Assembly (NCBI GenBank): GCA_022772585.1
Contig: JALEZN010000144.1
Location: 1-40,200, forward strand
DNA from: Clostridiales bacterium
GTDB lineage: Bacteria; Bacillota; Clostridia; Oscillospirales; Oscillospiraceae
Length of the DNA stretch: 40,200 nt
Reading direction: 5' to 3'
This document shows, in pieces, positions 237-18,070 of the stretch. The first letter of the stretch is position 1, and each line of letters begins with the position of its first letter. A program made the position numbers and the translations under genes. Below the pieces are notes generated by a model, which was not told the DNA's origin, made no database searches, and worked only from the letters and a program-made list of their open reading frames with translations.

Positions 237-283
237 GATATAAGCAGCCTGCCGGCCCAAAGAGCAGAATGAACACAGGACGA

Positions 284-390
284 GCTGTCAGGTAGCTTCA
301 TTCCGGATATTTTCGTTTCCTATCCAAACCGAAGCCCGGCGCAGCAGGTTCGGTTTGAGAAGGAGCCGCAGTAGAATGAGTGCGCGGTGA
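284..390 (-). repeat. Dispersed repeat, copy A (next to tRNA-Arg 1)
   Basis: About 107 bases that recur at 13048-13166 (copy C) and 13247-13370 (copy B). The shared blocks, read on the plus strand, are CTGTCAGGT, GGATATTTTCG, an internal hairpin and a GGAGC-AGNAGAATGAG-like tail. In this copy the hairpin is CAAACCGAA (325-333) pairing with TTCGGTTTG (349-357). The stem bases differ between copies but stay paired. On the minus strand the repeat lies directly downstream of the tRNA terminator. No protein is supported. Confidence 0.8.
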
Positions 391-394
391 ATTT

Positions 395-431
395 AAAAAA
401 ATTCGCCGCAAGCGATATGACGCTTGCGGCG
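395..431 (-). terminator. Terminator of tRNA-Arg 1
   Basis: On the minus strand an 11-bp stem (431-421 with 414-404) with a 6-base loop is followed by AATTTTTTT (403-395). It starts 3 bases after the encoded CCA end of the tRNA. Confidence 0.9.
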
Positions 432-434
432 ACG

Positions 435-511
435 TGGTACGGCTGAAGGGATTCGAACCCCCGACCTACTGGTTCGTAGCCAGTCACTCTATCCAGCTGA
501 GCTACAGCCGC
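435..511 (-). tRNA. tRNA-Arg (anticodon ACG), copy 1
   Basis: A full cloverleaf of 77 bases including an encoded CCA (435-437). The acceptor stem is GCGGCTG with CAGCCGT, with a G-U first pair. The D arm contains AGCTCAGCTGGATAGAG. The anticodon stem is ACTGG/CCAGT with the 7-base loop CTACGAA, giving anticodon ACG (Arg, CGU and, after A34 editing, CGC/CGA). The T loop is GTTCGAATC. The identical gene is repeated in the same direction at 13412-13488. Confidence 0.97.
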
Positions 512-548
512 GTACCGCTGCCACAGTACTCTTACTGACAGCTCAATT

Positions 549-2374: not shown

Positions 2375-2387
2375 ACAAGTGGATGAA

Positions 2388-2419
2388 AAAAGCGGAGGGC
2401 GCGCCCGCCCTCCGCTTTT
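2388..2419 (+). terminator. Attenuating hairpin between binding protein and permease
   Basis: 14-bp perfect stem (2388-2401 with 2406-2419), loop CGCC, closing on AAAA/TTTT. It sits 13 bases after the lipoprotein stop and before the permease. This placement is typical of partial termination that keeps the binding protein in excess. Confidence 0.75.
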
Positions 2420-2461
2420 GCTACCACTAAGAAGCTAGAGAGTAAGATTGGAGCGTGTACT

Positions 2462-3553
2462 ATGCAGAAATTTGACAAGATCAAATTCCGCAACAACATG
2501 TCCACGGCGGCCCGGCAGGCGGTCATTTCAGTGTCGGCGGTCGTGGTGGCCCTGGTCATCAGCATGCTGATCATCGCCGCCATGGGTGTGGATCCCTTCA
2601 AGGCCATGAGCAAGATCATCAGCGGCGCGCTGGGTGGAAAGAACGCCATCGCTGAGACCCTGGTCAAGATGACTCCCCTGATCTTTACCGGTATCAGCTA
2701 TGCCCTTGCCAGCCGCTGTGGCCTGACTAACCTGGGCATGGAGGGCCAGCTCTATATGGGCGCCCTGTTCGCCACCATCGCCGGCGTCTATATCCCCGGT
2801 CTCCCCATGGCCATCCATCTGCCCCTGACCATGTGCGCCGGCTTCCTGGGCGGCGCCATCTGGGGCTGGATCGTGGGCGTGCTGAAGGTCCGCTTCGACG
2901 CCAGTGAGCTCATCACCACTGTTATGCTTAACACCGTTGCCATCCAGCTGGTACAATACATGGTCAACGGCCCCATCACCGAGCCCCCCGGAAACGACGC
3001 CCAGAGCTCGCCGCTGCTGGAGAGCGCCAGCCTGCCGGTGATCCTGAAAGGGACCCGGGCCCATCTGGGCATCATCATCGCGCTGGTGTTTGTCTGGCTG
3101 TTCTGGATGTTCCTCTGGTCCAGCAAGAAGGGCTATGAGATCCGGGTCTCCGGACAGAACCCTGACGCGGCCATCTACTCCGGCATCAATACCAAGAAAA
3201 ATATCGTCCTGGTCATGCTGCTGGCCGGCGGCGTTGCCGGTCTGGCCGGCGCCACCGAGGTCATGGGCGTACAGGGACGTCTGTTCCCCACAGTCTCTCC
3301 CGGATACGGCTTCGACGGTATGGCCGTCGCCCTCATCGGCGCCAATACGCCGCTGGGCATCGTGGCCGGCGCCTTCCTGTTCGGCATCCTGCGTGCGGGC
3401 GGCAACTCCATGCAGCGGGCCACCGGCGTCCCCGTGGCCATCATCAAGGTCATCCAGGCCATCGTTATCATCATGGTGGTTGCTACCGCGATCCTGCGCG
3501 AGACCAGCTTCAAGCGCAAGAAGCGTAACGCCAAGACGGCCAAAGCGGCGTAA
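2462..3553 (+). CDS. BMP-type ABC transporter permease 1 (NupP-like)
   Basis: 363-residue inner-membrane permease of the branched-chain/simple-sugar type that partners BMP lipoproteins. After a short cytoplasmic N-terminus there is a hydrophobic helix (VISVSAVVVALVISMLIIAA), then the hallmark loop SRCGLTNLGMEGQLYMG, and about eight further membrane segments. The cytoplasmic coupling region YEIRVSGQNPDAAIYSGIN is clear (usual form RxxGxNPxAAxxxGI). It ends with a basic tail (RKKRNAKTAKAA). It forms a heterodimer with the next gene, which starts 12 bases downstream. Length is normal for the family. Confidence 0.9.
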   Translation: MQKFDKIKFRNNMSTAARQAVISVSAVVVALVISMLIIAAMGVDPFKAMSKIISGALGGKNAIAETLVKMTPLIFTGISYALASRCGLTNLGMEGQLYMGALFATIAGVYIPGLPMAIHLPLTMCAGFLGGAIWGWIVGVLKVRFDASELITTVMLNTVAIQLVQYMVNGPITEPPGNDAQSSPLLESASLPVILKGTRAHLGIIIALVFVWLFWMFLWSSKKGYEIRVSGQNPDAAIYSGINTKKNIVLVMLLAGGVAGLAGATEVMGVQGRLFPTVSPGYGFDGMAVALIGANTPLGIVAGAFLFGILRAGGNSMQRATGVPVAIIKVIQAIVIIMVVATAILRETSFKRKKRNAKTAKAA

Positions 3554-3565
3554 GGAGGAGAGCGT

Positions 3566-4492
3566 ATGGACTTTATCAGTATCGTAGGCGGCCTTCTGGC
3601 CTCCGATATCCGTATGGCGACCCCGATCCTTCTGGGCGCTCTGGGCCTGCTGATCATGAACCGGGCGGGCCTTATCAACATCGGCTGCGAGGGCATCATG
3701 CTCATCGCCACCTTCGTGGCCATCGCCGGTACCTATTATATGCACAACGTGTGGCTGGGTATGCTCTGTGCCATGCTGGTGGGCGCCCTGTTGGGCCTGC
3801 TTTTCGCCTTCCTCACGGTCAGCCTCCGGGCCAACCAGGTGGTGGTGGGCGTGGCGTTCAACACTTTGGGTGCCGGCGTGAGTACCGTGCTCTACCGCAT
3901 GATCTTCGGTATGGACTTCGTGTCCGTTAAGGAGTATGCCTTCCAGCGCATCTCCATTCCCGTCCTGAAGGACATCCCCCTCATCGGCGAGGCCCTGTTC
4001 AACCAGATGCCCGTGGTGTACATCGCGTTCCTGCTGGTGCCCGTGGTGTCCTATTTCCTGTTCCGTACCCCCACCGGCCTGAACCTGCGCTCGGTGGGTG
4101 AGAATCCCAAGGCCGCCGACACGCTGGGCATCGACGTGTACCGGATGCGGTATGCCGCCACTATCGTGGGCTGCATGCTCATGGCCATGGGCGGCGCATT
4201 CCTGTCCACCGGCCTGCTCAACTCCTTCCAGGAGGACATGACGGCCAACCGCGGCTTCATCGCCCTGGCCGCCGTTATCTTCGGCCGCTATAAGCCCACC
4301 GGGGTCATGCTGGCCACCCTGCTCTTCGCCTTTGGTCTGGCCGTGGCCAACCTGCTGCCCTCCATCAATTCTCCCATCCCCTACAACTTTGTGACCATGA
4401 TCCCCTATATCCTGACCATCGTGGTCCTGGCTGGCTTTGCCGGCAAGACCGTGGCCCCCGCCGCGGCGGGCAAGCCCTATAAGAAAGGCTGA
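3566..4492 (+). CDS. BMP-type ABC transporter permease 2 (NupQ-like)
   Basis: 308-residue inner-membrane permease, second half of the channel. It starts MDFISIVGGLLAS behind GGAGGAG. It has the paired family signature NRAGLINIGCEGIML at about residues 32-46 and the coupling segment LRSVGENPKAADTLGIDV, followed by RYAATIVGCMLMAMGGA. I count roughly eight to nine membrane helices. It is shorter than permease 1, as usual for this pair. The ATPase gene follows 14 bases later. Confidence 0.9.
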   Translation: MDFISIVGGLLASDIRMATPILLGALGLLIMNRAGLINIGCEGIMLIATFVAIAGTYYMHNVWLGMLCAMLVGALLGLLFAFLTVSLRANQVVVGVAFNTLGAGVSTVLYRMIFGMDFVSVKEYAFQRISIPVLKDIPLIGEALFNQMPVVYIAFLLVPVVSYFLFRTPTGLNLRSVGENPKAADTLGIDVYRMRYAATIVGCMLMAMGGAFLSTGLLNSFQEDMTANRGFIALAAVIFGRYKPTGVMLATLLFAFGLAVANLLPSINSPIPYNFVTMIPYILTIVVLAGFAGKTVAPAAAGKPYKKG

Positions 4493-4506
4493 GGAGGTGC
4501 GTACAT

Positions 4507-6039
4507 ATGTCTGAAATGATCCTGGAAATGAAGCATATCACCAAGCGCTTCCCCGGTGTGCTGGCCAACGACGACGTGAACCTCAGCGTGGCCAAGGGCG
4601 AGGTCCATACCCTGCTGGGCGAGAACGGCGCGGGCAAGTCCACCCTGATGAACGTGCTCTGCGGATTGTACCACCCCACCTCCGGCGAGATCTGGCTGGA
4701 AGGGCAGAAGGTCAAATTCAGCTCCGCCAAGGATGCCATGAACCGGGGCATCGGCATGGTGCACCAGCACTTCATGCTCATCCCCACCCTCAGCGTGGTG
4801 GAGAACTGCCTCATCGGCGCCAAGTCCAAGAGCCTGCTCAAGCTGGACCTGGAGGGCGCCGCCAGGGAGATCAAGGCCCTGGCCGACGAGTACAACATGG
4901 GCGTGGACCCCATGGCCAAGGTGGAGACTCTGCCTGTGGGCGCCCGCCAGCGGGCTGAGATCATCAAGGCCCTGTACCGGGGCGCCAAAATCCTGATCCT
5001 GGACGAGCCCACCGCCGTGCTCACTCCCCAGGAGACGGAGGAGCTCTTCAACATGGTGCGCAAGCTGACCAAGAGCGGCTACACTGTCATTTTCATCAGC
5101 CACAAGCTCAACGAGGTGCAGGAGATCAGCGACCGTATCACCGTCCTGCGGCAGGGCAAGAGCATCACCACCGTAAACAACGACGGCATCTCGGTCAACG
5201 AGCTGGCCCGCCTGATGGTGGGCCGCGAGGTGGATATGACGGTTACCCGCAAGGAGACCGACCAGTCCAAAGCCATGCTCACCGTGTCCCATTTGACCCT
5301 GGGCCAGAAGGACGGCAACCGCCTGCTCAACGATGTGTGCTTCGAGGTCCACAAGGGCGAGATCTTCGGCATCGCCGGCGTGGACGGCAACGGCCAGGGC
5401 GAGCTGGTGGAGTGCCTTACCGGCCTGGGGAAGGCCACCTCGGGCAATGCCATCTACAAAGACCTGGACCTGGCCAAGGCTACTACCCGTGAGATCATGA
5501 AGAGCGGCGTCTCCCACGTGCCTCAGGACCGCCAGAAGAGCGGCCTGATCCTCTCCATGAATCTGGCTGAGAACATGATCCTGCAGGATTATTATCAGCC
5601 TGAGTTCGGCAAGGGCCCCCTGCTGGACTGGAAGTATATCAACGACTTTACTGACCGCCTGATCCGGGACTTCCAGATCAAGGCCCCCAGCCGCTTTGAG
5701 CTGGCCCAGAACCTGTCCGGCGGCAACCAGCAGAAGGTCATCATTGCCCGGGAGGTGAGCCGGGAGCCCGGCCTCCTCATCGCCATGCATCCCACCCGCG
5801 GCGTGGATGTGGGCGCCATCGAGTACATCCACAAGCGCATCGTCCATGAGAGAGACGAGGGCCGCGCGGTCCTGCTGGTCTCCACCGAGCTGGAGGAGGT
5901 CATGAAGCTCTCTGACCGGGTGGCTGTCATGTACGAAGGCGAGATCATGGGTATTGTCAAGCCAGGTGAAGTCACCGTGGAAGAGATGGGCCTGATGATG
6001 GGCGGAAAGCGGCTGGAAGAGATCCGCGTGAAGGCGTAA
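4507..6039 (+). CDS. BMP-type ABC transporter ATPase, tandem domains (NupO-like)
   Basis: 510-residue cytoplasmic ATPase with two fused nucleotide-binding domains. Domain 1 has Walker A GENGAGKST (38-46), signature LPVGARQ (the usual S is P) and Walker B ILILDEPTAVL. Domain 2 has the degenerate P-loop GVDGNGQGE, an intact LSGGNQQK signature and the altered Walker B LLIAMHPTRGVDVG. This asymmetry is standard for the simple-sugar/nucleoside class, where one site is catalytically weak. In B. subtilis nupNOPQ the ATPase precedes the permeases; here it is last. The operon closes with a strong terminator. Confidence 0.92.
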   Translation: MSEMILEMKHITKRFPGVLANDDVNLSVAKGEVHTLLGENGAGKSTLMNVLCGLYHPTSGEIWLEGQKVKFSSAKDAMNRGIGMVHQHFMLIPTLSVVENCLIGAKSKSLLKLDLEGAAREIKALADEYNMGVDPMAKVETLPVGARQRAEIIKALYRGAKILILDEPTAVLTPQETEELFNMVRKLTKSGYTVIFISHKLNEVQEISDRITVLRQGKSITTVNNDGISVNELARLMVGREVDMTVTRKETDQSKAMLTVSHLTLGQKDGNRLLNDVCFEVHKGEIFGIAGVDGNGQGELVECLTGLGKATSGNAIYKDLDLAKATTREIMKSGVSHVPQDRQKSGLILSMNLAENMILQDYYQPEFGKGPLLDWKYINDFTDRLIRDFQIKAPSRFELAQNLSGGNQQKVIIAREVSREPGLLIAMHPTRGVDVGAIEYIHKRIVHERDEGRAVLLVSTELEEVMKLSDRVAVMYEGEIMGIVKPGEVTVEEMGLMMGGKRLEEIRVKA

Positions 6040-6209: not shown

Positions 6210-7526
6210 TTATTCTTCGATGATGGCCCGATGTCCCTCTTCGGGGACCTTTTCCAGCATTTCTAGAGCCCGGAGGACATGGGCCTCCCGGTATGCTTTC
6301 TCACTGGGAAGGGGCAGAGAGGGGTCTCCGAATACGTGCAGGACGCTGTTGCCCCGCAGGATACGGTTGGCGCCGATGCCCTCGGCGATCTTTGTCAGAT
6401 TGGTCACCTGGATGACCGGGATACCAGCGCGCTGGATTTCTTTGGTAATCATGGACCCGCCACGACTGCTGGTCCCTCACGTAGAGGTCTCAATGGCGGC
6501 GTCACAGAGGTCGTCCTTGAGGGCCTGAGCGATCCCTTCGCCAAACTCCTTGCATTTTTCCATGGGTGTCATGACGCCTGCGGTGGAATAGAAACAGTCG
6601 TTGAGACTGCCGATAACGCCTTCCTTTACCAAGTGGCGCAGGGCATCTACCGGTACCAGGCGATTAGGATCCTGGAGAACAAAGGCATTGTTATAGCCCT
6701 GGTGGCTGACCTCCCAATCAGCAGGGTCCAACGTCTCCATTCCCTCGATGGAGTATCTGCGGAAGAACTTGGAATTTGTGGGGACCTGATGATCAGGATT
6801 TCCCTTGGGCACCAGGCCGCCGTCGGTCACAAGACCGATCCTGCACTCGGAGAGAGGCTTGGTAAGCACGGGAATGGGGATCTCCTCATGATTGGGCATC
6901 ATGACCTCAGTATGGAAGGCCTGCTTGTGGAACTTGGACAGCAGCATATCGATGCCGCGCTGGGCAGCAGGGATGCTGTAGTCGATCTCAATGGCGGGGC
7001 CGCTGCCGTGGAAGCCCTCTTCCTTACCGTCCAGGATGTTGTCACCGGCGACCAGGCGCTTGGCAAAGGCGGCCACCCGCGCGATAGCGTTCTTCATGTT
7101 TTTTGCGTTGTTGTCGGTCTGAAGAATGTAGCAGCGGTTTTTGTACAGGTCGGTGCCGGGATTCTCCGAGTAGAGAGCGGTGACGGCGGGGATCTTCAAC
7201 TGCTCGGTGACGGCGGCGGTGGTGGAGCCGCAGCCCAGGCCGTACCGGCCCGCATTGAAGCCGGGGCCCGCCACAAACAGGTCGGCTTTGGCTTCCTGAA
7301 CGACCGCAAGTACCTGGGGAATGATCTCGTCGGGATGCTCCGCAATGGTATTGTCGCCGCAGACGATGGTCTTTACGATCTCAAATTCATCGCCCAGGGC
7401 CGCTGCAAGCGCAGTACCGGGGCCCACAGGGCCGTCCCGCAGGGAAAGACCTACGCTGGCGGTATCTTCGCCGCCCATGCCAGCATAGAACTGATTGATA
7501 TAGTGGACTACTCGTTTCTTTTCCAT
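6210..7526 (-). CDS. GrdB-like reductase selenoprotein (in-frame UGA = Sec)
   Basis: 438-residue homologue of the selenoprotein subunit of glycine/sarcosine/betaine reductase component B, which reductively cleaves its substrate at the selenocysteine. The start is ATG 7526 behind GGAGG. The N-terminus VVHYINQFYAGMGGED and VAGPGFNAGRYGLGCG match the family, as do GLVTDGGLVPKGNPD and VSHQGY. TGA at 6479-6477 is codon 350, in the context ETST-U-GTSSRGGS, exactly where GrdB has Sec. The frame continues 88 codons (TKEIQRAGIPVIQVTNL) to TAA. Full length equals the family (about 436). The two cysteines that usually follow Sec (UGTCTRCG) are Ser and Gly here. It lies 3 bases after the GrdE-like gene. 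The substrate is unknown; no grdA/C/D genes are nearby. Confidence 0.88.
6447..6479 (-). promoter_or_regulatory. Candidate bacterial SECIS element in the grdB-like gene
   Basis: Immediately 3' of the UGA, transcript bases 10-17 (AGUCGUGG, 6467-6460) pair with bases 23-30 (CCAUGAUU, 6454-6447), including two G-U pairs. The 5-base loop is CGGGU (18-22). The loop G/U lie at the same distance from UGA as in the fdh element at 16971-17002. Confidence 0.6.
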
Positions 7527-7529
7527 AAG

Positions 7530-8792
7530 TTAGTCCTCCTTTCGTTCAATATCGCTGTCCGTTGTTACATAGCAGTCGCCCAGCTGGGACCAGATGCCCT
7601 GATATGCAAAATTGGTGGTATGGGTGAAGGGACCCCAGGGGTCATAGCCCAGGAGACAGGGGACGTTGGAACCCTCGCCGATGAGCCGCTCCACACGGGG
7701 ATGCTCCAGGTCGTAGTTGCGGCCGCTGTTGATGACTGCGTCCACCGCGGGATCGGCGATGACCAGCATGTCGCCGGGCTCGTCATTGGAGACGGCGGAG
7801 AGGTTGAGAACGGCGGGCATGCCCAGCTTCTGGCACCAGTTGAAGGCCAGGGCGGAGTCCAACTGACAGTGGCCCATGCCCGACTTGTTCAGCAGCACGC
7901 AGTCCGCTCCGAAGGTCTCCTTGCAGACGTTGGCCGCGATCATGCCCATGGTATCCTTACCGTCAATTTTCATGACGTTATTGGCGAAAACGATGCCCAC
8001 GAACTCCAGGTCTTTGCCGTGGCGCTTCATCAGCTCCTTGATGTAGACCTCGTTCTGTAGGAAGTAGTTGGGCTCCCAGTAACGCCAGATCATCGCGCCG
8101 TCCAGGATCTCGGTGGGCTGGACCACGAAGGGCAGGAAATTCAGGGCGCTCTGGCCGTAATACAGGAAATTCCAGGTGTCGTGGGAGGCCATGTGGGTCA
8201 CCAGATAGGCCACCTTGGGCAGCTTCTTAGCGGGATCCACAGGCTTGCGCTCAAAGACCTCGGTCTCGTCGGGCTCCAGGTCGATGGCCAGCTTGGCCAG
8301 GTGGACGTTCAGGGCCAGGGAGGCGTGCTTGAGGGCCTCGGCGTAAGTGGCGTCAGATACACCCTCGCCTGGAGTGGCGTCCAGGCAGATGTGGAAGTGC
8401 CGGGAGAAGTTGCTGTACTTGGCCGCCGGGCCGCCCATGTCCAGATAGTACTTGATGTTGCACTTTGCGTAATAGATATCCGACACCACGACGCCCTTGA
8501 GGGCTACGGTGCGGCCCTCGCCGGCAATGGACAGCTTGCCCCAAATGCCGGGGTAAGACTCCTCAGGATGATCCGCCTTGCAGCGGGGCTGCATCACGTC
8601 ATGGATGCTCAGAATACGGCAGCTTTCACCTGGGCGGGCCAGCTGGATGTCTACCCTGCCAAACAGGTCGCTGGAGACCAGCTCCAGCAGCTCCTGCTTG
8701 TTCAGGGTCAGGACCCCATCAACCAGGGAGGTTTTCTCGCCGAACCGGACGTCCCTCACTCTTACATAGTCGATTTGAAGCCGTTTGCTCAT
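7530..8792 (-). CDS. GrdE-like reductase component B subunit lacking the cleavage Cys loop
   Basis: 420-residue homologue of GrdE, the proprotein subunit of glycine/betaine/sarcosine reductase component B. The start MSKRLQIDYV at 8792 is chosen because AAGGA (8808-8804) lies directly against the upstream ATG and 11 bases from this one. Family blocks: VDGVLTLNKQEL (about 25-36), LARPGESCRI (51-60), DVMQPRCK, LKGVVV (98-103), DMGGPAAKYSNFS (118-130), PDETEVFERKP, VQPTEILDGAM (224-234), FVGIVFANN and ADPAVDAVINSGRN (347-359). In GrdE/PrdA, as I recall them, DGAI is followed by a loop with the motif GNCVSAC whose first Cys becomes the pyruvoyl group. Here DGAM runs directly into IWRYWEPNYF (235-244) with no cysteine. 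Either it is not processed or it works by other chemistry. Confidence 0.82.
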   Translation of the reverse strand: MSKRLQIDYVRVRDVRFGEKTSLVDGVLTLNKQELLELVSSDLFGRVDIQLARPGESCRILSIHDVMQPRCKADHPEESYPGIWGKLSIAGEGRTVALKGVVVSDIYYAKCNIKYYLDMGGPAAKYSNFSRHFHICLDATPGEGVSDATYAEALKHASLALNVHLAKLAIDLEPDETEVFERKPVDPAKKLPKVAYLVTHMASHDTWNFLYYGQSALNFLPFVVQPTEILDGAMIWRYWEPNYFLQNEVYIKELMKRHGKDLEFVGIVFANNVMKIDGKDTMGMIAANVCKETFGADCVLLNKSGMGHCQLDSALAFNWCQKLGMPAVLNLSAVSNDEPGDMLVIADPAVDAVINSGRNYDLEHPRVERLIGEGSNVPCLLGYDPWGPFTHTTNFAYQGIWSQLGDCYVTTDSDIERKED

Positions 8793-8833
8793 ACACGTAT
8801 TCATCCTTTCTGTTCAGTTCTGTCACAGGCGTG

Positions 8834-9718
8834 TCACCATTGGATGGAATTACCTGGCGCTTTGTCGGGAACGGCGTCCCCCTCCAGAATGGCGGAGAGT
8901 GCGTCCAGAAGTTTGGGTCTGTCATCCGGCAGATTTCCCACCAATGGGAGCACGTTGGAGCCGTGGTTTCCCACGAAGCGGCAGGGACTTATGCCGTCGA
9001 GGGCCTCCAGCAGCAGACGTTCCTCCTCCAGGATCAGCCGGGGCGGGGGGAGGTGGAACCGCCCGGCGGCAACGTCTGCCGCCAGAGGCGTCCCCTGCAT
9101 TGGCGTCAGGGTCATCACACGGATGGATCTGGGAGATACTTGGAGATAGAGGGCGGCTGTGTCGCGGGCGTGTTCCCTCCAGAGCTCCGTTCCGCCCAGG
9201 CCCAGGATGGAGCTCAGGCCGTAACGGATGCCTGCGCGGTCCAGGCGGTGCAGCTGCTGGATGATCTCTGCCGGGGTCTCGCCCTTATTACAGGCGGCCA
9301 GTACGCTGGCGTTTCCCGATTCAACGCCTACATACACCGTGTCCAGTCCGGCTTCACGGAGCCATACCAGCTGCTGGTCAGACTTTCCGGCGATATCATC
9401 CGCCCGGCCGTACAGGGCAAATTCCCGGATGTTCGGCAGATAGCGTTTGGCCATCCCAAACACGTCCAGAAGATAGTGGGTCCGGAAGGCCAGGACATTT
9501 TCTCCAGTGAGATAGAGCCGCTCTGATTCCGTTTCGTGTAGGGCCAGCTCCATCAGGCTGTCGGCCAGCATCCGGGGCGAGGCTAATTGAAGGGGGACTG
9601 ACCCGTCCGACAATCGGCAGAAGGTACACTTTCCATAACTGCATCCCACCGAAACTTCCAGAAGGAGGCTGCCTGCCTCTGTGGGGGGACGGTATATTGT
9701 CTCATAGAACGTGGCCAT
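8834..9718 (-). CDS. Radical SAM protein of unknown function
   Basis: 294-residue putative cytoplasmic [4Fe-4S]/SAM enzyme. The cluster motif is CSYGKCTFC (26-34), a CX4CX2C spacing instead of the common CX3CX2C; similar CxxGKCxFC sites occur in a subset of radical SAM proteins. The SAM-side motifs follow: a GEN segment (LTGENVLAFR), LYGRADDI, GLDTVYVGVESGN and GLSSILGLGG, an Elp3/HemN-like barrel. No B12 domain or C-terminal auxiliary cluster is visible. The start follows GAGGGCGTCC. It lies 25 bases after the MFS gene and 41 bases before the GrdE-like gene, so it is probably co-transcribed with the reductase. It could modify the reductase or generate its substrate. Neither can be told from sequence. 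Confidence 0.8.
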   Translation of the reverse strand: MATFYETIYRPPTEAGSLLLEVSVGCSYGKCTFCRLSDGSVPLQLASPRMLADSLMELALHETESERLYLTGENVLAFRTHYLLDVFGMAKRYLPNIREFALYGRADDIAGKSDQQLVWLREAGLDTVYVGVESGNASVLAACNKGETPAEIIQQLHRLDRAGIRYGLSSILGLGGTELWREHARDTAALYLQVSPRSIRVMTLTPMQGTPLAADVAAGRFHLPPPRLILEEERLLLEALDGISPCRFVGNHGSNVLPLVGNLPDDRPKLLDALSAILEGDAVPDKAPGNSIQW

Positions 9719-9743
9719 GGACGCCCTCTTTTCTTTAATTGTG

Positions 9744-10937
9744 TTACTTACGCTGCTTCTCTGCGCCGGGAAGAGTGAGCACCAGCAGGATACCGATCAG
9801 GGCGACCGCGCCGGCGCAGATAAAGGCGGTGGAGGGACCCACCATCTTGGCCAGCAGGGAGGCGCCCACCGAGCCGGTACCGAAGCCGATCATGGTCAGG
9901 GACAGGATGGTGCCCAGATTCTTGGTGCCGAAGCGGTCCGCGGCGATGGGGGAGAAGCAGGCCTGGCTGCCGCCGTAAGAGAAGCTGATGAGGCAGAAGC
10001 AGACAACATAGAGGTAACCGGTGGACACGGTGAGCAGTGCCACGCCGGTGGCGGTCAGCAGGAAGCTGATGGCGAACGCGCCCTTGCGGCCGATTTTGTC
10101 GCTGATGGTGGGGACGGCAAAGCGGCCGGCCACCTGGCACATGGAGGCGGCGCTTACGCCCAGGGTAGCCATGGCAGCAGTAAGGCCCTTGTCGGCACCG
10201 AAGGTGACGAAAATGCCGCTGAGCAGCAGATATGCGGGAACGGCGCAGAAATACAGGCCCATCAGGGTCCAGAATTCCTTTACATGGAATACTTCATGTA
10301 CCTCATACTGCTTTTTGGTGGTCATATTGGCACCAGTCCCCACATAGTCGGCCATATAGCCCTCGGGCGGGTTTTTCATGGTCAAGGTACCGAATACGCC
10401 GATAGCCAGGTAGACGAAGCCAACGATCATAAAGGACTTGCCGAAGCCGTAGTTCTTCAGCCATCCGCTTACCACGGGGCTGAACACGGTGGCCGACATA
10501 CCAAGCATCGCCAGCGTCAGGCCGGAGGCCAGACCCTTTTTATCGGGGAACCACTTGGGCATCAGGGCGACAATGACATTGTAGACCATTCCGTCGCCGA
10601 TACCGAACAGCCCGCCAAAGGTCAGGAACATGGCCCAGAACATGCTGCTGGGCAGGAAGGAGGTCAGTAGCCAGCCCAGGAACATCAGGGTATAGCCGAT
10701 GATCAGAGTTTTTTTCATGCCGAACGTTCTCTGGGACTGACCGCCCAGGAAGTTGCCTACGCAGAACACAGCGATGAAAATGGTGTAGGGAAGGCTCGCG
10801 CTGGCGGAGTCCACGTTAAAATGGGTCATGACGTGGGGCTGGAATAGGCTGTAGGTGTAGCAGATTCCCATGACCAGCATGCAGATCATGCCGCAGATCA
10901 TCAGGACCCACCGGTTCGTTTGCTTGGTTGCATTCAT
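9744..10937 (-). CDS. MFS transporter, oxalate/formate antiporter (OFA)-like
   Basis: 397-residue, 12-helix inner-membrane carrier. It opens with NRWVLMICGMICMLVMGICY, then YTIFIAVFCVGNFLGG (helix 2), the loop GMKKTLIIG, and MPKWFPDKKGLASGLTLAMLG between helices 4 and 5. This W(F)PDKKGLASG block is the hallmark of the OFA family, whose members exchange small organic anions. The centre contains a hydrophilic loop (PPEGYMADYVGTG). The start is set by GGAGG at about 10952. It heads the apparent operon MFS - radical SAM - GrdE-like - GrdB-like, so it may import the reductase substrate or export its acid product. Actual substrate unknown. Confidence 0.85.
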   Translation of the reverse strand: MNATKQTNRWVLMICGMICMLVMGICYTYSLFQPHVMTHFNVDSASASLPYTIFIAVFCVGNFLGGQSQRTFGMKKTLIIGYTLMFLGWLLTSFLPSSMFWAMFLTFGGLFGIGDGMVYNVIVALMPKWFPDKKGLASGLTLAMLGMSATVFSPVVSGWLKNYGFGKSFMIVGFVYLAIGVFGTLTMKNPPEGYMADYVGTGANMTTKKQYEVHEVFHVKEFWTLMGLYFCAVPAYLLLSGIFVTFGADKGLTAAMATLGVSAASMCQVAGRFAVPTISDKIGRKGAFAISFLLTATGVALLTVSTGYLYVVCFCLISFSYGGSQACFSPIAADRFGTKNLGTILSLTMIGFGTGSVGASLLAKMVGPSTAFICAGAVALIGILLVLTLPGAEKQRK

Positions 10938-11086
10938 GTTTTAACTTCCTCCTATCTCGTTTCTTGTCTCGGGCACAGAGCGCTTCTGATGCAGAGCTTT
11001 TCAACCGGACCTGGAGCAGCGCCTTTCGAGGGAATGAAACCTCCTTTCTGATCCTTCAATTCAGAAAACCTATTTGGAACAATTAC

Positions 11087-11116
11087 ATTATAGATGAAGC
11101 CTATGTACGATTTCAC
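11087..11116 (-). promoter_or_regulatory. Possible promoter of the MFS/reductase operon
   Basis: Minus strand: -35 GTGAAA (11116-11111), 18-base spacer, -10 TATAAT (11092-11087). It would leave a leader of about 145 bases containing a small TTCTGA/TCAGAA hairpin. The rest of the 393-base gap 10938-11330 holds no gene. Confidence 0.4.
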
Positions 11117-11168
11117 TTTACAATGAGATGAATATGCACAAAAAATGTGCAAGCGGATGAAAATGTTT

Positions 11169-11178
11169 CGTATATACG
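11169..11178. promoter_or_regulatory. Palindrome CGTATATACG, candidate TetR operator
   Basis: Perfect 10-bp palindrome in the divergent region between the MFS operon and the tetR gene. It shares CGTAT/ATACG half-sites with the palindrome in the promoter at 11916-11944. Confidence 0.35.
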
Positions 11179-11330
11179 TCCAATTTTGCTGAGATTTGTT
11201 GAGACTTATTGTAAGAAATGATATTGATTTTTACCTGTTAAGCCTGTAGAATGAAAATGAAAGAGTGTTATGTAAATGTTTTCCACTTCGTTGAGCACCT
11301 GCACTGTAATCGGAGGAGAGGGGCTATAGT

Positions 11331-11900
11331 GTGCCAAAGACTGAAATTACAAAGGCGGCCCTGGCGAGCGGCCTTCGCAGCCTCATGACGAAAAAGAAGC
11401 TGAATCAGATCACAATCAAAGACATTACGGACGAATGTGGGATCAGCCGTAACGCGTTTTATTACCACTTTTCCGACAAGTACGACTTGGTCAATTGGAT
11501 CTTTACCTCCCAGACATTGCCGGTCATCAATACTTTCAGTGACCCGGACCGCTACTTTGACGGGTTTGTCGCGCTGTGTAAGCACATGCTGGAGGACAAG
11601 CAGTTCTATATGGAGGCCTTTCGCTATTCCGGCCAAAACTCTCTGTGGGAGACATTGACAAAGTCCTATTTCGAGTTGATCAAAATTCATATTTCTTCGG
11701 TCTATGCCCAAATCGGATACCGACTGAGCGACAATGAACTGTTTATTGTGGCCCGGCTGGAGACGCACGCCTATGTAGGGATCATTAAGGAGTGGGTAAA
11801 AGATGGAATGAATGAGAACTATATTACCTATTTTGAGCAGCTCAAGCGAGTCAAGGCCGGACTGGCGTTCCCGCTGGCTCCCGATGAGACAAGGCAGTAA
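11331..11900 (+). CDS. TetR-family transcriptional regulator (DhaS-like)
   Basis: 189-residue DNA-binding regulator. The GTG start at 11331 follows GGAGGAGAGG (11312-11321). The HTH is IKDITDECGISRNAFYYHFSDKYDLV (about residues 26-51). The rest is an all-helical ligand/dimer domain of the TetR_C_8/DhaS type (RYSGQNSLWETLTKSYFELI, GIIKEWVKDGMNE). It is divergent from the MFS/reductase operon and lies just upstream of the short GrdB-like gene, so control of both is the simplest reading. Palindromes at 11169 and 11920 are possible binding sites. AT content is higher than in most neighbours. Confidence 0.85.
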   Translation: MPKTEITKAALASGLRSLMTKKKLNQITIKDITDECGISRNAFYYHFSDKYDLVNWIFTSQTLPVINTFSDPDRYFDGFVALCKHMLEDKQFYMEAFRYSGQNSLWETLTKSYFELIKIHISSVYAQIGYRLSDNELFIVARLETHAYVGIIKEWVKDGMNENYITYFEQLKRVKAGLAFPLAPDETRQ

Positions 11901-11915
11901 AAATGGATTTTTAGA

Positions 11916-11944
11916 TTGACATACGTATGGCTGTTCGGTACACT
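11916..11944 (+). promoter_or_regulatory. Promoter with embedded palindrome, upstream of the short GrdB-like gene
   Basis: TTGACA (11916-11921), 17-base spacer, TACACT (11939-11944). A perfect palindrome CATACGTATG (11920-11929) overlaps the -35 and spacer, where a repressor would block RNA polymerase. Confidence 0.6.
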
Positions 11945-11994
11945 TATATTGAAAATAAGGACGATTTGTACCGTTAGATCGCGAGGAGATTAGA

Positions 11995-12849
11995 TTGCCA
12001 AAACGATATATTGATATTGTCTGGAATCCGGATCAGCACCGGAAAAGTGTTGATGTATCGATCAAACATAATATCGACTATTCTGTGCCAGCGCCTACCC
12101 GCGGTATCGATATGCTGTTGACCAAATTCCGGGGCGAACCATTTAAAACAGAGGTGGAGTTTGCTGCCGCTCAGACAGTCCAGGTTCCCCGGCTGTCAAA
12201 GCCGCTGGCTGAGTCTACGGTCGCGTTTGTGACCGATGGAGGTCTGGTCCCTCGCGGCAATCCGGACGGCCTGCCGCCGGTCAATGCCGACAAGTTCTGT
12301 ATTTACCCGTTCTATGGGGCGGACAGCCTCTGTGCCGCCGACTACACGGTCAGCCACCAGGGCTATGACAACCGGTATATCCTGGAGGATCCCAACCGGC
12401 TGATCCCGCTGGACGCAGCCAGACAGGCGGTTGCGGACGGGAAGATCGCCGGGGTATTTGATTTCTTTTATGTCACCACAGGCGTTATGACGTCGGTTGA
12501 GAACAGCCAGGTTTATGGGAAACGGATCGCCGCGTCAATCGGCGCGAATGGGGTGGACGGCGTGATTCTGACCTCTACCTGCGGTACCAGTACCCGATGC
12601 GGAGCCTATATTTCCTGTGAACTGGAAAAGGCAGGGATTCCTGTGGTCCATGTCACCAACTTGGCCCATATCTCCGAATGGGTAGGATGCAGCCGCATCC
12701 TGTGCGGGAACGACATCAGCCATGTGTTTGGTGACCCGGAGATTTCTCCTGAGATGGAGAGGATATACCGCAAAAATATGTTTGACAAAGCGCTGCGCCT
12801 GCTTGATTCGGTCCCCGCCGATAACGCCAGCTTGGTGGTCCGGGGATAA
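11995..12849 (+). CDS. Short GrdB-like protein with Cys in place of Sec
   Basis: 284 residues from a TTG start at 11995, with GAGGAG 6 bases upstream. It aligns with the C-terminal two thirds of the GrdB-like protein at 6210: IDYSVPAPTRGIDMLL, FVTDGGLVPRGNPDG, TVSHQGYDNRYILEDPNRL, VTTGVMTSVE and KAGIPVVHVTNL. The active-site block is TSTCGTSTRCGAY, so the Sec position is Cys (residue 201) and one of the later cysteines is kept. The N-terminal domain (about 150 residues) of full-length GrdB is absent and no remnant lies upstream. In layout it recalls PrdB of D-proline reductase, which is also a short Sec protein. It has its own promoter and terminator. It could be a redox partner, an alternative catalytic subunit or a decayed paralogue; the clean frame argues against decay. 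Confidence 0.82.
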   Translation: MPKRYIDIVWNPDQHRKSVDVSIKHNIDYSVPAPTRGIDMLLTKFRGEPFKTEVEFAAAQTVQVPRLSKPLAESTVAFVTDGGLVPRGNPDGLPPVNADKFCIYPFYGADSLCAADYTVSHQGYDNRYILEDPNRLIPLDAARQAVADGKIAGVFDFFYVTTGVMTSVENSQVYGKRIAASIGANGVDGVILTSTCGTSTRCGAYISCELEKAGIPVVHVTNLAHISEWVGCSRILCGNDISHVFGDPEISPEMERIYRKNMFDKALRLLDSVPADNASLVVRG

Positions 12850-12911: not shown

Positions 12912-13048
12912 GTCAATTCGGAACGAAGTGGAGAATTGTCATAGGCGGAATTTACTTCCGCCGTTAAATGATGAAATGGTGCTTCGGCCCGCCCCGCCGG
13001 GCCGAAGCCCAATAAAAATACCACGACATATGTCGTGGTATTTTTATT
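12912..13048. repeat. Run of hairpins ending in a 38-bp perfect palindrome
   Basis: No gene. In order: CAATTC/GAATTG (about 12914-12939), GGCGGAA/TTCCGCC (12943-12964), GCTTCGGCCC/GGGCCGAAGC (12981-13008), and a 38-base perfect palindrome (13011-13048; AATAAAAATACCACGACAT and its complement). The last can act as a terminator in both directions. It leads directly into repeat copy C. Confidence 0.7.
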
Positions 13049-13166
13049 GTCAGGTGGCTTTAATCTGGATATTTTCGCTTCTTAACCCGAATCGAAGCCC
13101 AGCGCAGCGGGTTCGATTCGGAAAGGAGGAGCAGCGGCATGAGCACGCTCTGACTTTTGTAAAAAA
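13048..13166 (-). repeat. Dispersed repeat, copy C
   Basis: Copy of the element at 284-390 and 13247-13370. The internal hairpin is CCGAATCGAA (13087-13096) with TTCGATTCGG (13112-13121). Unlike copies A and B it is joined to a different terminator hairpin and there is no tRNA beyond it. Confidence 0.8.
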
Positions 13167-13198
13167 GTCGGAGCAAGCGATATAAAGCTTGCTCCGAC
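13161..13198 (-). terminator. Terminator hairpin of repeat copy C
   Basis: Minus strand: 12-bp stem (13198-13187 with 13178-13167), 8-base loop, then TTTTTT (13166-13161). It occupies the same place as the tRNA terminators in copies A and B, but no tRNA precedes it. Confidence 0.75.
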
Positions 13199-13208
13199 GT
13201 GTACCAAT

Positions 13209-13242: not shown

Positions 13243-13246
13243 CTGA

Positions 13247-13370
13247 GCTGTCAGGTGGCCTCAATCTGGATATTTTCGTTTCCCACCCGAACCGGAATCC
13301 AGCGAAGCGAATCCGGTTCGGAAGCGAGGAGCAGCAGAATGAGCGCGGGATGAGTTTTTGATGCGAAGCA
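13247..13370 (-). repeat. Dispersed repeat, copy B (next to tRNA-Arg 2)
   Basis: Third copy. The hairpin is CCGAACCGGA (13287-13296) with TCCGGTTCGG (13312-13321), exactly 200 bases from the hairpin of copy C, so B and C form a near-tandem pair. It leads into the same tRNA terminator and tRNA as copy A. Confidence 0.82.
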
Positions 13371-13371
13371 T

Positions 13372-13408
13372 AAAAAAATTCGCCGCAAGCGATATGACGC
13401 TTGCGGCG
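13372..13408 (-). terminator. Terminator of tRNA-Arg 2
   Basis: Identical to 395-431: an 11-bp stem followed on the minus strand by AATTTTTTT. Confidence 0.9.
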
Positions 13409-13411
13409 ACG

Positions 13412-13488
13412 TGGTACGGCTGAAGGGATTCGAACCCCCGACCTACTGGTTCGTAGCCAGTCACTCTATCCAGCTGAGCTACAGCCGC
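13412..13488 (-). tRNA. tRNA-Arg (anticodon ACG), copy 2
   Basis: Base-for-base identical to 435-511, including the encoded CCA and the anticodon loop CTACGAA. The identity with copy 1 covers 124 bases (13371-13494 against 394-517), taking in the terminator, and then stops abruptly on the promoter side. Confidence 0.97.
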
Positions 13489-13504
13489 GTACCGAACAAA
13501 AAAT

Positions 13505-15355: not shown

Positions 15356-18070
15356 TCAGAGTTTTTCTACCTTGACAGCGCAGACCTTGTATTCCGGAGC
15401 GCGGGCGATCCGGTCCAGCGCGGCGTGAGTGAGCCAGTTGCAGCTGCCCTCTAGGTAATGGAAGGGCATCCAGCACTCGCCCGGAGAGGTTTTGCCGCTG
15501 ACACGGGCGCGCGTGAAGATCGTTCCGCGGCGGGAGGAGACGGATACCATTTCACCGTCCGCTACACCCAGGCGGGCCGCGTCCCGCTCATTGAGCTCGA
15601 TAAAGGACTCGCCGCCGGTCTCCACCAGACCGGGAGTCTTGTCAGTCATGGCGCAGGCGTTATAGTGGTAAAGGATGCGGCCGGTCATCATCAGAAGGGG
15701 ATACTCCTCATCGGGCAGCTCCACAGAGGGGATATACCGGGCAGGGTAGAACCAGCCCTTTCCGCGGCTGAACCGGCCTACATGGAGAATGGGAGTGCCG
15801 GGATGGTCCCCGGCAGGGCAGGGCCACTGAAGGCCCTGGCCGTTTACAGCAGGGCCGTCCAGACGCCGGTGACTGACGCCTGCGTAAATGGGCGCCAGTG
15901 AGGCGATCTCGTCCATGATCTGGGCAGGGGTGAGGCAGGGCTGAGGGTAGCCCATACGGTTCATCAGATCCATGAAGATCTCGGCATCCGGACGGGCGGC
16001 GCCGGGAATGGTGACGGCCTTGCGGACACGCTGGATCCGGCGCTCACTGTTGGTAAAGGTTCCCTCTTTTTCCGCATAGCTGACGCCGGGGAGCACCACA
16101 TCGGCCAGTTTGGCGGTCTCGGTCATAAAGAGCTCCTGGACCACCAGAAAATCAAGAGAGCGAAGGGCTTTGAGCACATGACCGGTATCGGGATCGGTGC
16201 GGACCGGATCCTCTCCGAAGATAAAGAGGCCGCGAAGCCTGCCCTCCAGCATGGCCGGGAAGCAGTCGGTGGCGAACATGCCGGGCTCCGGGTTAAGGGA
16301 CACACCCCAGGCCTGCTCAAATTTGGCCCGCACGGCAGGATCGGAGACCTTCTGATAGCCGGGAAGATCGGTGGGGGAGGCGCCCATGTCGCAGGCGCCC
16401 TGCACATTGTTCTGACCGCGGATGGGATTGACGCCGCAGCCCTCCCGACCCAGCTTGCCCACCAGCATGGCCAGGTTGGACAGGGACATGACGCCCTCGG
16501 TACCGGTGGAGTGTTCCGTGACGCCCAAACAGTAACAGATGGGGGCGCGCTCCGCCGTGGCGTACAGCCGGGCAGCGGCCCGGAGGTCATCGGCGTCGAT
16601 ATGACAGATCTCAGCCACCCGTTCGGGGGTATAATCCTTGACGGTCTCGCGGAGGGCTTCAAAGTTCTCCGTGCGCTCGGCGATGAAGTCCTTGTCCTCC
16701 AGACCTTCGGACAGGATAATATTCATCATGCCATTGGCAAAGGCCACGTTGGTTCCGGGCCTGAGCTTGAGATGGATGGCGGCCTGTCTGGACAGGCCGA
16801 TGTCGCGGGGGTCTACGACGATCAGCCGGGCGCCGCGCTGGACCGCCTGGCGGATCTGCATGCCGAAAACGGGGTGTGCCTCCTCAGGGTTGGAACCGAC
16901 GAGCATGATCACGTCGGAGCACTGGCTCACATCGGCGAAGGTATTGGTCATCGCACCGGAGCCCAAAGTGGTTGCCAGACCGGCAACTGTGGGAGCGTGT
17001 CACACACGTGCGCAGTTGTCGGTGTTGTTGGAGCCGAAACAGGTGCGCACCATTTTCTGCAGCATGTAGATGTCTTCGTTGGTGGAGCGGGAGCAGGCAA
17101 AACCGGCCAGTGCATCAGGGCCGTACTCTTTTTTGATGTCCATCATGCGGTTGGCCACCAGGTCCAGGGCCTCATCCCAGGAGGCCTCCCGGAACTCATT
17201 GGTAGCCCGGTCCCGGATCAGGGGAGCCGTGAGGCGGCGGCCGGAGTGGACAAAATCGAAGGAACCCGAGCGGCCTTTGACGCATAGGAGCCCTTTGTTG
17301 GAGGGGCCGTCGGCGGCCCTGGTGTCCACCACACGGCCGTCCTTTACCAGAAGGTCAAACTGACAGCCCACCGCGCAGTGGGGACAGGTGGTGCGGACGG
17401 CTTTCTCCACCTGCCAGGGACGGTAATCCTTCTTCCGTTTGGAGGTAAGGGCGCCGGTGGGACAGGCGGCCACGCAATTTCCGCAGGACTCGCAGGAGCT
17501 CTCGCTCCAGGGCATGCCGAAGGGTGGACTGATGACGGATTCAAAGCCCCGTTCCATGGTATCGATGGCGCCGCAGCCGGTGAGCTTGTGGCAGACGTTC
17601 ACGCAGCGGTGGCACAGGATACACAGGTTGGGATCGTAGGTAAAGAAGGGATTGGAGTCATCCACCGGCAGATCGGACATCTCACCGGGACAGGAGGTCT
17701 CCCTCACGCCGTACTCGTAGCACAGGTCCTGCAGCTTGCAGTCGCCGTTGGAAGGGCAGGAGAAGCAGTTGGTGGGGTGATTGGAGAGCAGCATATCCAG
17801 AATGCCCCGGCGGGCCTTGACCACGGCCTCGCTGCGGGTCTGGATATGGTCGCCCTCGGAGCAATGGGCGGAGCAGGCGGTATCCATTTTGCTGCGGCCC
17901 CGGTTTTCGATCTCCACCGTACAGATGCGGCAGGAGCCGTCGGGCATCAGGCCCTTGAGATAGCACAGGGTGGGGATCTTCACACCGATCTGCTCGGCGG
18001 CCTCCAGGATGGTGGTGCCCTGTTCCACCTCGATGGGGATACCATCGATGGTAACATGGATCAAATTCAT
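15356..18070 (-). CDS. fdhA: NAD-linked formate dehydrogenase, selenoprotein catalytic subunit with NuoG-like N-terminus
   Basis: 904-residue Mo/W-bis-MGD enzyme interconverting formate and CO2. The N-terminal third is NuoG-like: a [2Fe-2S] domain (PTLCYLKGLMPDGSCRIC), a cysteine-rich domain (NCFSCPSNGDCKLQDLC) and two [4Fe-4S] sites (CILCHRCVNVC, CESCGNCVAACPTGAL). The formate dehydrogenase domain opens with CPHCAVGC. TGA at 17002-17000 is codon 357, in DNCARV-U-HAPTVAGL, the universal Sec site of formate dehydrogenases. The frame continues unbroken to TGA 15356. A SECIS hairpin sits right after. Downstream motifs include VDPRDIGLSRQAAIHLKLRP and CDMGASPTDLPGYQ. It lies 18 bases after the NuoF-like gene. 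Reading it as two genes or a pseudogene would be wrong. Confidence 0.95.
16971..17002 (-). promoter_or_regulatory. Bacterial SECIS element of fdhA
   Basis: After the UGA, bases 13-18 (GUUGCC, 16987-16982) pair with bases 24-29 (GGCAAC, 16976-16971), and the loop is GGUCU. As I recall the E. coli fdhF element, its loop also contains GGUCU starting at base 19 after UGA, which is the same position. Confidence 0.85.

What the first reader, a model, noticed from the sequence alone, without database searches (positions are those of the whole stretch)
6210..12849. Possible new Sec-dependent reductase locus: MFS, radical SAM, GrdE-like and GrdB-like genes with a TetR regulator and a Cys paralogue
Four minus-strand genes with gaps of 3 to 41 bases form one apparent unit, divergent from a TetR regulator and a second GrdB-like gene. 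Known glycine, sarcosine and betaine reductases need GrdA (selenoprotein A), GrdC/D (acetyl transfer) and thioredoxin. None of these lies in the 40-kb window, and a radical SAM protein and an organic-anion-type transporter take their place. This points to a different substrate and electron route, possibly without the acetyl-phosphate step.
Basis: partly seen in the sequence, partly recalled or inferred. Interest (0 to 1): 0.82.

Follow-up and report, generated by a model that had tools for sequence, protein, structure and literature searches.

The report
Fluoroacetate-reductase operon with paralogue sensor candidate
A bacterium with sporulation genes carries a gene set already described in rumen bacteria for stripping fluorine from the poison fluoroacetate with a selenium enzyme; the part not described in the papers found is a conserved cut-down copy of that enzyme beside the regulator gene, which may act as its sensor.

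Summary
The genes are real and correctly placed. The locus is not a new reductase: it is a farACEB (fluoroacetate reductase) operon as described in Cloacibacillus porcorum MFA1 (Leong 2023, PMC10838667), same order. FarE scores 863.9 bits against a cut-off of 675 for NCBIfam fluoroAc_FarE. The claim of an electron route without GrdA or acetyl phosphate fails: the same assembly holds trxB-trxA-grdA(Sec)-grdC-grdD, all over curated cut-offs, a GrdE/GrdB-type pair, tRNA-Sec and SelA. GrdA occurs in 19 of 22 FarE genomes against 14 of 394 genomes of the order. The radical SAM and OFA transporter are not core: all four genes occur in 3 of 29 far loci. What I found in no paper searched is the other half of the finding: the 'Cys paralogue' is a C-terminal half of FarB with Sec replaced by Cys, seen in 21 of 29 far loci, each time with a DhaS-like TetR, and many of these share an operator-like motif. 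I propose, untested, that it is a substrate-sensing partner of that TetR, built like the DhaQ/DhaS pair. Whether fluoroacetate or another small carboxylate is the natural substrate stays open.

The parts
6210..7526 (-). farB: GrdB-like selenoprotein, 438 residues with Sec; active site TST-U-GTSSRGGS
   Evidence: tree places it with Synergistota FarB of L084 and L083, 100/97
6477..6479 (-). in-frame TGA (selenocysteine codon) of farB
6450..6464 (-). SECIS-type stem-loop after the TGA (5-bp stem, 5-nt loop)
   Evidence: 99.2% and 99.5% of cells paired, compensatory pairs; Rfam SECIS_4 reached in 2 of 13 sources scanned (L025, L029), not in the window copy; folding alone gives no significant z-score
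7530..8804 (-). farE: GrdE-like subunit without the Asn-Cys pyruvoyl cleavage site
   Evidence: NF053623 863.9 bits, cut-off 675; site absent in 29 of 29 FarE rows
8834..9718 (-). farC: radical SAM protein (accessory, seen in 4 of 29 far loci)
   Evidence: PF04055 50.1 bits
9744..10937 (-). farA: OFA-family MFS transporter
   Evidence: best NCBIfam model is an L-lactate MFS transporter, 255.1 bits, below its cut-off of 320
11134..11152 (.). candidate operator ATGCACAAAAAATGTGCAA between farA and tetR (same half-site as in relatives, but the two half-sites stand in the opposite order to those of L027)
11331..11900 (+). DhaS-like TetR regulator (TetR_C_8)
11995..12849 (+). Cys half-FarB paralogue (C-terminal half of FarB; Cys at codon 12580-12582), candidate co-sensor

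Best explanation
This is a far (fluoroacetate reductase) locus. FarA brings in a small alpha-substituted acetate; fluoroacetate is the only one documented in the papers found. FarE and FarB form a substrate-specific 'protein B' of the glycine reductase system. The FarB selenolate attacks the alpha carbon and displaces fluoride, so no Schiff base is needed, which fits the loss of the pyruvoyl site in FarE. The Se-carboxymethyl group then goes to GrdA (Sec) and GrdC/GrdD, coded elsewhere in the genome, which release acetyl phosphate; TrxA/TrxB supply electrons. FarC is a dispensable accessory. The TetR controls the locus from a TTTGTGCAT-type operator, probably together with the Cys half-FarB protein as ligand sensor. 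Shown here: gene content, Sec codon and stem, lost motifs, presence of GrdA/C/D/Trx in the assembly, co-occurrence, phylogeny, operator-like motif. Published for the relative: induction by fluoroacetate and fluoride release. Inferred: substrate in this organism, reaction steps, regulation, sensor role.
For: FarE 863.9 bits, cut-off 675. Same order A-C-E-B as in Leong 2023, where MFA raised operon expression about 5,000-fold on average and FarB without CxxC and FarE without the processing cysteines are described. L084 (Synergistota) holds the same six genes at 77, 58, 85, 81, 72 and 63% identity; window FarB groups with Synergistota FarB, 100/97. GrdA, GrdC, GrdD, TrxA, TrxB over cut-offs on C102; GrdE/GrdB-type pair on C54; tRNA-Sec 66.4 bits and SelA 490.8 bits on C134. 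GrdA in 19 of 22 FarE genomes, over its cut-off in 14 of 394 genomes of the order. SECIS covariation. A carrier of the FarA, LctP or LrgB kind in 21 of 29 far loci and in 0 of 12 GrdE control loci.
Against: I found no report of a purified enzyme; the published case rests on induction, fluoride release and comparison of strains. NF053623 is an annotation model. Leong et al. themselves suggest the preferred substrate may be another, amine-containing compound. No fluoride riboswitch in the window or in 12 relatives scanned. 3 of 22 FarE genomes lack a GrdA match (all three records are MAGs). The assembly has 8.26% estimated contamination. Carriers differ between loci, so the substrate may differ too.
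Confidence: 0.77

Rival explanations
1. Same protein B chemistry feeding GrdA/C/D, but fluoroacetate is a fortuitous substrate. The natural substrate is another small monocarboxylate (chloroacetate, glycolate, another alpha-substituted acetate), taken up by lactate/glycolate-type carriers and in some strains released from esters or amides. (Not exclusive with the best explanation.)
For: LctP-family permease in 14 of 29 far loci, OFA in 6, LrgB in 3, none of these in 12 GrdE control loci; M20 amidohydrolase in 7, two kinds of alpha/beta hydrolase in 7 and 8, DsbA-like in 8 of 29 (families). Hosts in several phyla seem many for a plant toxin (inference). No fluoride riboswitch in 13 scanned sources.
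Against: The one substrate reported is fluoroacetate, with strong induction and fluoride release in relatives. The LctP-like carrier of L025 is over the Pfam cut-off but below the NCBIfam lctP cut-off, 320.8 against 341.15 bits, so its specificity is unknown. The controls come from one order while the far loci span phyla, and some hits lie several kb from farE. Hydroxide is a poor leaving group (recalled chemistry).
Confidence: 0.4
2. One reading: an independent reductase with a different electron route, radical SAM in place of GrdA, no acetyl-phosphate step.
For: No GrdA in the 40-kb window; radical SAM inside the operon.
Against: Complete grdACD-trxAB in the same assembly; GrdA in 19 of 22 FarE genomes against 14 of 394 in the order; radical SAM not seen in 25 of 29 far loci, a few of them cut by contig ends.
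Confidence: 0.05
3. The Cys half-FarB is not a sensor but a redox or repair partner of FarB, supplying the thiols that FarB has lost.
For: FarB lacks the first Cys of UxxCxxC in 27 of 27 and a clade of 7 that holds the window lacks both; the half protein keeps Cys at +6 in every row with a letter there (21 proteins). In L027 it stands behind farB, away from TetR.
Against: It neighbours the TetR codirectionally in 19 of 21 loci and is not seen in 8 of 29 loci with FarE and FarB, of which L032 and L038 are cut by the contig end. It is less conserved than FarB in 189 of 190 locus pairs. L039 has a FarB with both cysteines lost and no half protein in its 21-kb locus.
Confidence: 0.25

Closest known systems
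farACEB fluoroacetate reductase operon, Cloacibacillus porcorum MFA1 (Leong et al. 2023, PMC10838667, held main text read in full; figures and supplements not seen)
   Same: Gene order, four families, Sec in FarB, lost CxxC of FarB, lost processing cysteines of FarE, GrdA and GrdC-type components elsewhere in the genome
   Different: Host is of another phylum (the window's genome does not appear among the matching genomes of the 185 searched as the phylum of the Pyramidobacter genome, though it has FarE) and has sporulation genes; the half-length Cys paralogue and a TetR operator are not mentioned in the held text (a figure legend names acrR); fluoroacetate use untested here
Glycine/sarcosine/betaine reductase protein B (GrdE/GrdB, GrdG/GrdF, GrdI/GrdH)
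   Same: Pfam families PF09338 and PF07355; over the cut-off of the general selenoprotein B model TIGR01918 (393 against 65.45 bits); Sec position; co-occurrence with GrdA
   Different: Below the cut-offs of the three substrate-specific models (429.1 of 800, 370.8 of 775, 358.5 of 602.2 bits); no Asn-Cys site in FarE; FarB plus half proteins split from GrdB at 100/99
DhaS-DhaQ of Lactococcus lactis (TetR activator with a catalytic-subunit paralogue as ligand sensor; recalled, original paper not held; PMC7911632 passages name DhaQ a coactivator)
   Same: DhaS model matched by 20 of 20 far TetRs scanned, next to an altered paralogue of the pathway enzyme
   Different: Window TetR is below the DhaS cut-off; the paralogue is a half GrdB, not a DhaK relative; no interaction or ligand data

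Membership tests
far (fluoroacetate reductase) operon | FarE over the curated cut-off of NF053623 | tested here: met
   863.9 against 675 bits
far (fluoroacetate reductase) operon | Order farA-farC-farE-farB | tested here: met
   L084 shows the same order
far (fluoroacetate reductase) operon | FarB with Sec but without CxxC; FarE without processing cysteines | tested here: met
far (fluoroacetate reductase) operon | GrdA and GrdC/D elsewhere in the genome | tested here: met
far (fluoroacetate reductase) operon | Induced by and releasing fluoride from fluoroacetate | not testable with these tools
   no expression or enzyme data for this organism
Glycine/sarcosine/betaine reductase protein B, broad family | Over the cut-off of PF07355/PF09338 and TIGR01918 | tested here: met
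   429.1/22, 258.7/22.2 and 393/65.45 bits
Glycine, sarcosine or betaine reductase protein B proper | Over the cut-off of a substrate-specific GrdB model | tested here: not met
   best is GrdF, 429.1 of 800 bits
Glycine/sarcosine reductase protein B proper | Asn-Cys pyruvoyl site in the GrdE-type subunit | tested here: not met
   absent in 29 of 29 FarE, present in 13 of 14 GrdE-type rows
DhaS (TetR activator) | Over the cut-off of TIGR02366 | tested here: not met
   92.2 of 129 bits, yet the best model for the window TetR
DhaS-DhaQ-like sensor pair (works like) | Regulator gene next to an altered paralogue of the pathway enzyme | tested here: met
   19 of 21 codirectional neighbours
DhaS-DhaQ-like sensor pair (works like) | Physical complex and ligand-dependent activation | not testable with these tools
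   needs protein work

The most novel reading that the evidence does not exclude
The Cys half-FarB is a sensor made from the enzyme: a duplicated catalytic half that kept FarB-specific residues but has Cys in place of Sec. It binds, perhaps becomes alkylated by, the halo- or alpha-substituted acetate and then teams with the DhaS-like TetR to switch on far genes, a second, independently evolved case of the DhaQ/DhaS principle.
Probability: 0.4. Interest if true: 0.7.

Novelty: new member of a known kind. Interest (0 to 1): 0.47.

Why it matters
Cleavage of a carbon-fluorine bond under anoxia by a selenoenzyme system is unusual. The papers found describe it in Synergistota only; the same kind of locus stands in Lachnospiraceae (including Hespellia stercorisuis DSM 15480, Faecalimonas umbilicata DSM 103426 and Catonella morbi ATCC 51271), Oscillospiraceae, Clostridiaceae, Atopobiaceae and a Myxococcota MAG, so it can be tested in named strains. 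If the Cys half-protein is the sensor, the inducer that it recognises would point to the natural substrate, which is the open question about this enzyme.

Tried and rejected
Rejected: a GrdA-free route. Rejected: chance stop at the TGA. Rejected: the half gene as plain debris; it is seen in 21 of 29 loci, with 32 columns conserved at 90% or more in FarB and half proteins but not in GrdB and a fair model (pLDDT 80.7). Led nowhere: PDB sequence search with FarE and FarB gave no match; Foldseek of the half protein gave none at E <= 0.001; folding single SECIS strands gave z-scores of only -0.68 to -1.15; Rfam did not call the window SECIS; an inverted-repeat scan of the window intergenic region alone did not give the operator, which came from comparing loci. 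Synteny: in the same-genus genome G184 the ABC transporter matches at 83% DNA identity and no other queried window gene matches in the 17 kb beyond it, so an empty site could not be shown.

Weak points told: two of five SECIS measures do not beat the shuffles (pairs changed on both sides 395 of 500, further pair types 493 of 500), and related rows can beat shuffles without structure. The operator motif was chosen and tested on the same regions and related loci inflate the count; the best 8-mers are in 12 loci against at most 8 in 20 shuffles. Eight of 23 TetR loci lack exact TTGTGCA, among them L082, L083 and L086. The tree finds the half proteins as 2 changes, not one clade, and warns of long branches. 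L082's half protein lies in a 550-residue open frame and may be fused; not resolved. L039 has a TetR hit (31%) about 7 kb behind farB, counted (24 of 29) but not in my 23 neighbours of far genes.

Rows left out before counts: L041 (30% identity) is not counted as a far locus. L038 is counted although its FarE is just below the cut-off (668.8 of 675); the other FarE of L020-L040 were taken by tblastn identity, not scored one by one. L023 and L038 have FarB cut by the contig end, so FarB counts use 27 of 29. SECIS alignment A2 used 25 of 27 (L026, L081 near-copies left out). A1 used 14 of the 15 half proteins then known (L026 left out). TetR alignment A4 used 20 of 23 (L022 partial, L026 and L081 near-copies left out). 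The 29 loci include near-identical pairs (L025/L026, L031/L081). Match lists are cut by the tool.
Full report
WHAT IS THERE. The six genes are as described. Minus strand: GrdB-like selenoprotein, GrdE-like, radical SAM and OFA-type MFS, gaps 3, 29 and 25 bases. Plus strand: TetR, then a GrdB-like gene with Cys. The GrdB-like gene reads through TGA 6477-6479 as TST-U-GTSSRGGS. GrdB on contig C54 and in 12 genomes of the same order reads TST-U-GTCTRCGA. The second GrdB-like gene covers only positions 173-347 of PF07355, the C-terminal half.

WHAT IT IS. The GrdE-like protein reaches 863.9 bits against NCBIfam NF053623 (fluoroacetate reductase subunit FarE, cut-off 675). Leong et al. 2023 (PMC10838667, all four parts of the held text read; figures and supplements not seen) describe farACEB of Cloacibacillus porcorum MFA1: OFA antiporter, radical SAM, GrdE-like and GrdB-like selenoprotein. 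The operon was raised on average about 5,000-fold by fluoroacetate, FarB lacks CxxC, and FarE lacks the processing cysteines. PMC12366334 (passages only) repeats the operon. The window has the same order and the same losses. In 29 of 29 FarE rows the Asn-Cys site is replaced (window: WRYW), while 13 of 14 GrdE-type rows keep it.

THE ROUTE TO ACETYL PHOSPHATE. Contig C102 carries trxB-trxA-grdA-grdC-grdD, all over NCBIfam cut-offs (359.7/343.45, 152.5/140, 284.9/130, 790.1/450, 559.5/350 bits); C54 carries a GrdE/GrdB-type pair; C134 carries tRNA-Sec and SelA. Among 22 genomes with FarE (the window's own and those of L020-L040), 19 have GrdA; the three without are MAG records. In the window's order GrdA passes its cut-off in 14 of 394 genomes and FarE in 1 of 394, the window's own. 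GrdB of C54 groups with that of the same-genus genome G184, 100/100, and the ABC transporter beside the far genes is 83% identical in DNA to G184, which speaks against contamination of these contigs; C102 was not tested in this way. That FarEB hands its product to these proteins is inference from co-occurrence and from Leong et al.

DISTRIBUTION. One scan of 84,980 species genomes with the window FarE gave 21 relatives at 62-83% identity and one at 30% that I do not count: Lachnospiraceae, other Clostridia, Faecousia, Olsenella, Pyramidobacter and a MAG titled Deltaproteobacteria. In the phylum of the Pyramidobacter genome FarE passes the cut-off in 7 of 185 genomes. Window FarB sits inside a clade with L084 and L083 of that phylum, 100/97, so the locus seems to have crossed phyla. 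L084 has the same six genes. The window contig carries Spore_III_AA and Spore_III_AB genes (246.9/27 and 146.3/32.5 bits).

CORE AND ACCESSORIES. Over 29 far loci (window, L020-L040, L080-L086): FarE in 29, FarB in 29 (cut by the contig end in two), TetR next to the far genes in 23, Cys half-FarB in 21, OFA FarA in 6, radical SAM FarC in 4 (only 34% identical and on the other strand in L024), all of A, C, E and B in 3. An LctP-family permease is found in 14 loci and LrgB in 3; with FarA, 21 of 29 loci have one of the three carriers, and 8 have none of them. In 12 GrdE control loci of the order (10.6 to 19.5 kb each) none of the three was found. M20 amidohydrolase (7), alpha/beta hydrolases (7 and 8) and a DsbA-like protein (8) recur. 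This points to a small carboxylate substrate; it does not single out fluoroacetate. No fluoride riboswitch was found in 13 scanned sources. Controls from one order are an imperfect match for loci from several phyla.

SELENOCYSTEINE SIGNAL. A 5-bp stem starts at base 16 counted from the T of TGA. In 25 FarB genes 99.2% of cells pair, 2 of 5 pairs show changes on both sides, and the covariation score of 0.320 is reached by 0 of 500 shuffles, whereas the number of such pairs and of pair types is not above the shuffles (395 and 493 of 500). With 13 GrdB genes added, 99.5% and 0.421. Slid versions pair at most 72.8% and 80.5%. Rfam SECIS_4 is reached at the same place in L025 and L029, not in the window.

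THE CYS HALF PROTEIN. The 15 proteins aligned have Cys at the Sec position, Ser at +3 and Cys at +6. With profile A1, a stop-free match occurs in 1 of 394 genomes of the order (the window's own), while the other 13 matching genomes give only TGA-containing GrdB. In the Synergistota set 6 of the 7 genomes with FarE over cut-off have a stop-free match, and every other listed match contains a TGA (the list is cut). So the half protein goes with far and not with Grd in general. In the tree FarB (27) and the half proteins (21) separate from GrdB (24) at 100/99. Thirty-two columns are conserved at 90% or more in FarB and half proteins but not in GrdB; in 18 of them GrdB has another commonest residue, among them D81, Q122, N134, V164, M165 and S199; 17 columns shared by FarB and GrdB are not kept in the half proteins. 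Whether the 18 line the pocket was not tested. The half protein is less conserved than FarB in 189 of 190 locus pairs (mean identity 0.54 against 0.71). The model (pLDDT 80.7) puts Cys196 just before the helix 197-212.

THE REGULATOR. The window TetR has its best NCBIfam match in DhaS (92.2 bits, cut-off 129), its best PDB matches are 4mk6 (5.6e-16) and 2iu5 (9.1e-10), both DhaS-type, and 20 of 20 far TetRs scanned match DhaS and TetR_C_8. In 19 of 21 loci the half gene is the codirectional neighbour of tetR; in L024 it is divergent and in L027 it stands behind farB. From memory, L. lactis DhaS works with DhaQ, a catalytically dead paralogue of DhaK that binds the substrate; that paper is not held, and PMC7911632 passages name DhaQ a coactivator. 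An 8-mer shared by the intergenic regions leads to TTTGTGCAT(N10)ATGCACAAA, three times in L027 (the third copy lacks the last A). Exact TTGTGCA occurs in 15 of 23 TetR loci (200 shuffles: mean 1.9, maximum 7) and in 0 of 6 loci without a neighbouring TetR; TTTGTGCAT with one mismatch in 18 of 23 and 1 of 6. The window copy, 11134-11152, has both half-sites but in the opposite order (TGCACA then TGTGCA), so the two forms may not be read alike.

LITERATURE CHECK. Searches (listings) showed no paper on far outside Synergistota, nor on a Cys half-GrdB regulator; the library holds open-licence papers only.

VERDICT.

Noticed in passing
window 282-517 and 13245-13494: Two tRNA-Arg(ACG) genes with shared flanks (84% over 251 bp, same orientation) bracket the ABC transporter plus far region, with a partial third copy of the flank at 13048-13201; they could mark an island, but I saw no integrase among the ORFs and no empty site was shown.
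   Followed up: partly
window 15356-18070 (-): Molybdopterin oxidoreductase (formate-dehydrogenase-like) selenoprotein: in-frame TGA read as Sec gives NCARV-U-HAPT, next to FdhD-NarQ and Complex1_51K genes.
   Followed up: partly
window 1325-6039 (+): Bmp/PnrA-type ABC transporter genes just before the far genes; ATPase 85% identical in the same-genus genome G184.
   Followed up: partly
L022, L025, L026, L028 beside the far genes: Repeated pairs of an alpha/beta hydrolase and a 138-residue protein, of which the L022 copy has no Pfam match.
   Followed up: no
L081 and L082 (one genome, G530): Two far loci in one genome: one with the LctP-type carrier, one with FarA and the UGTSSRGGS type of FarB, which suggests two substrate or redox variants.
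   Followed up: no
PMC12934955 (passages): Riboflavin-induced fin genes of Clostridium scindens include two glycine/betaine/sarcosine-reductase homologues (finHI), another such pair of unknown role in Lachnospiraceae.
   Followed up: no
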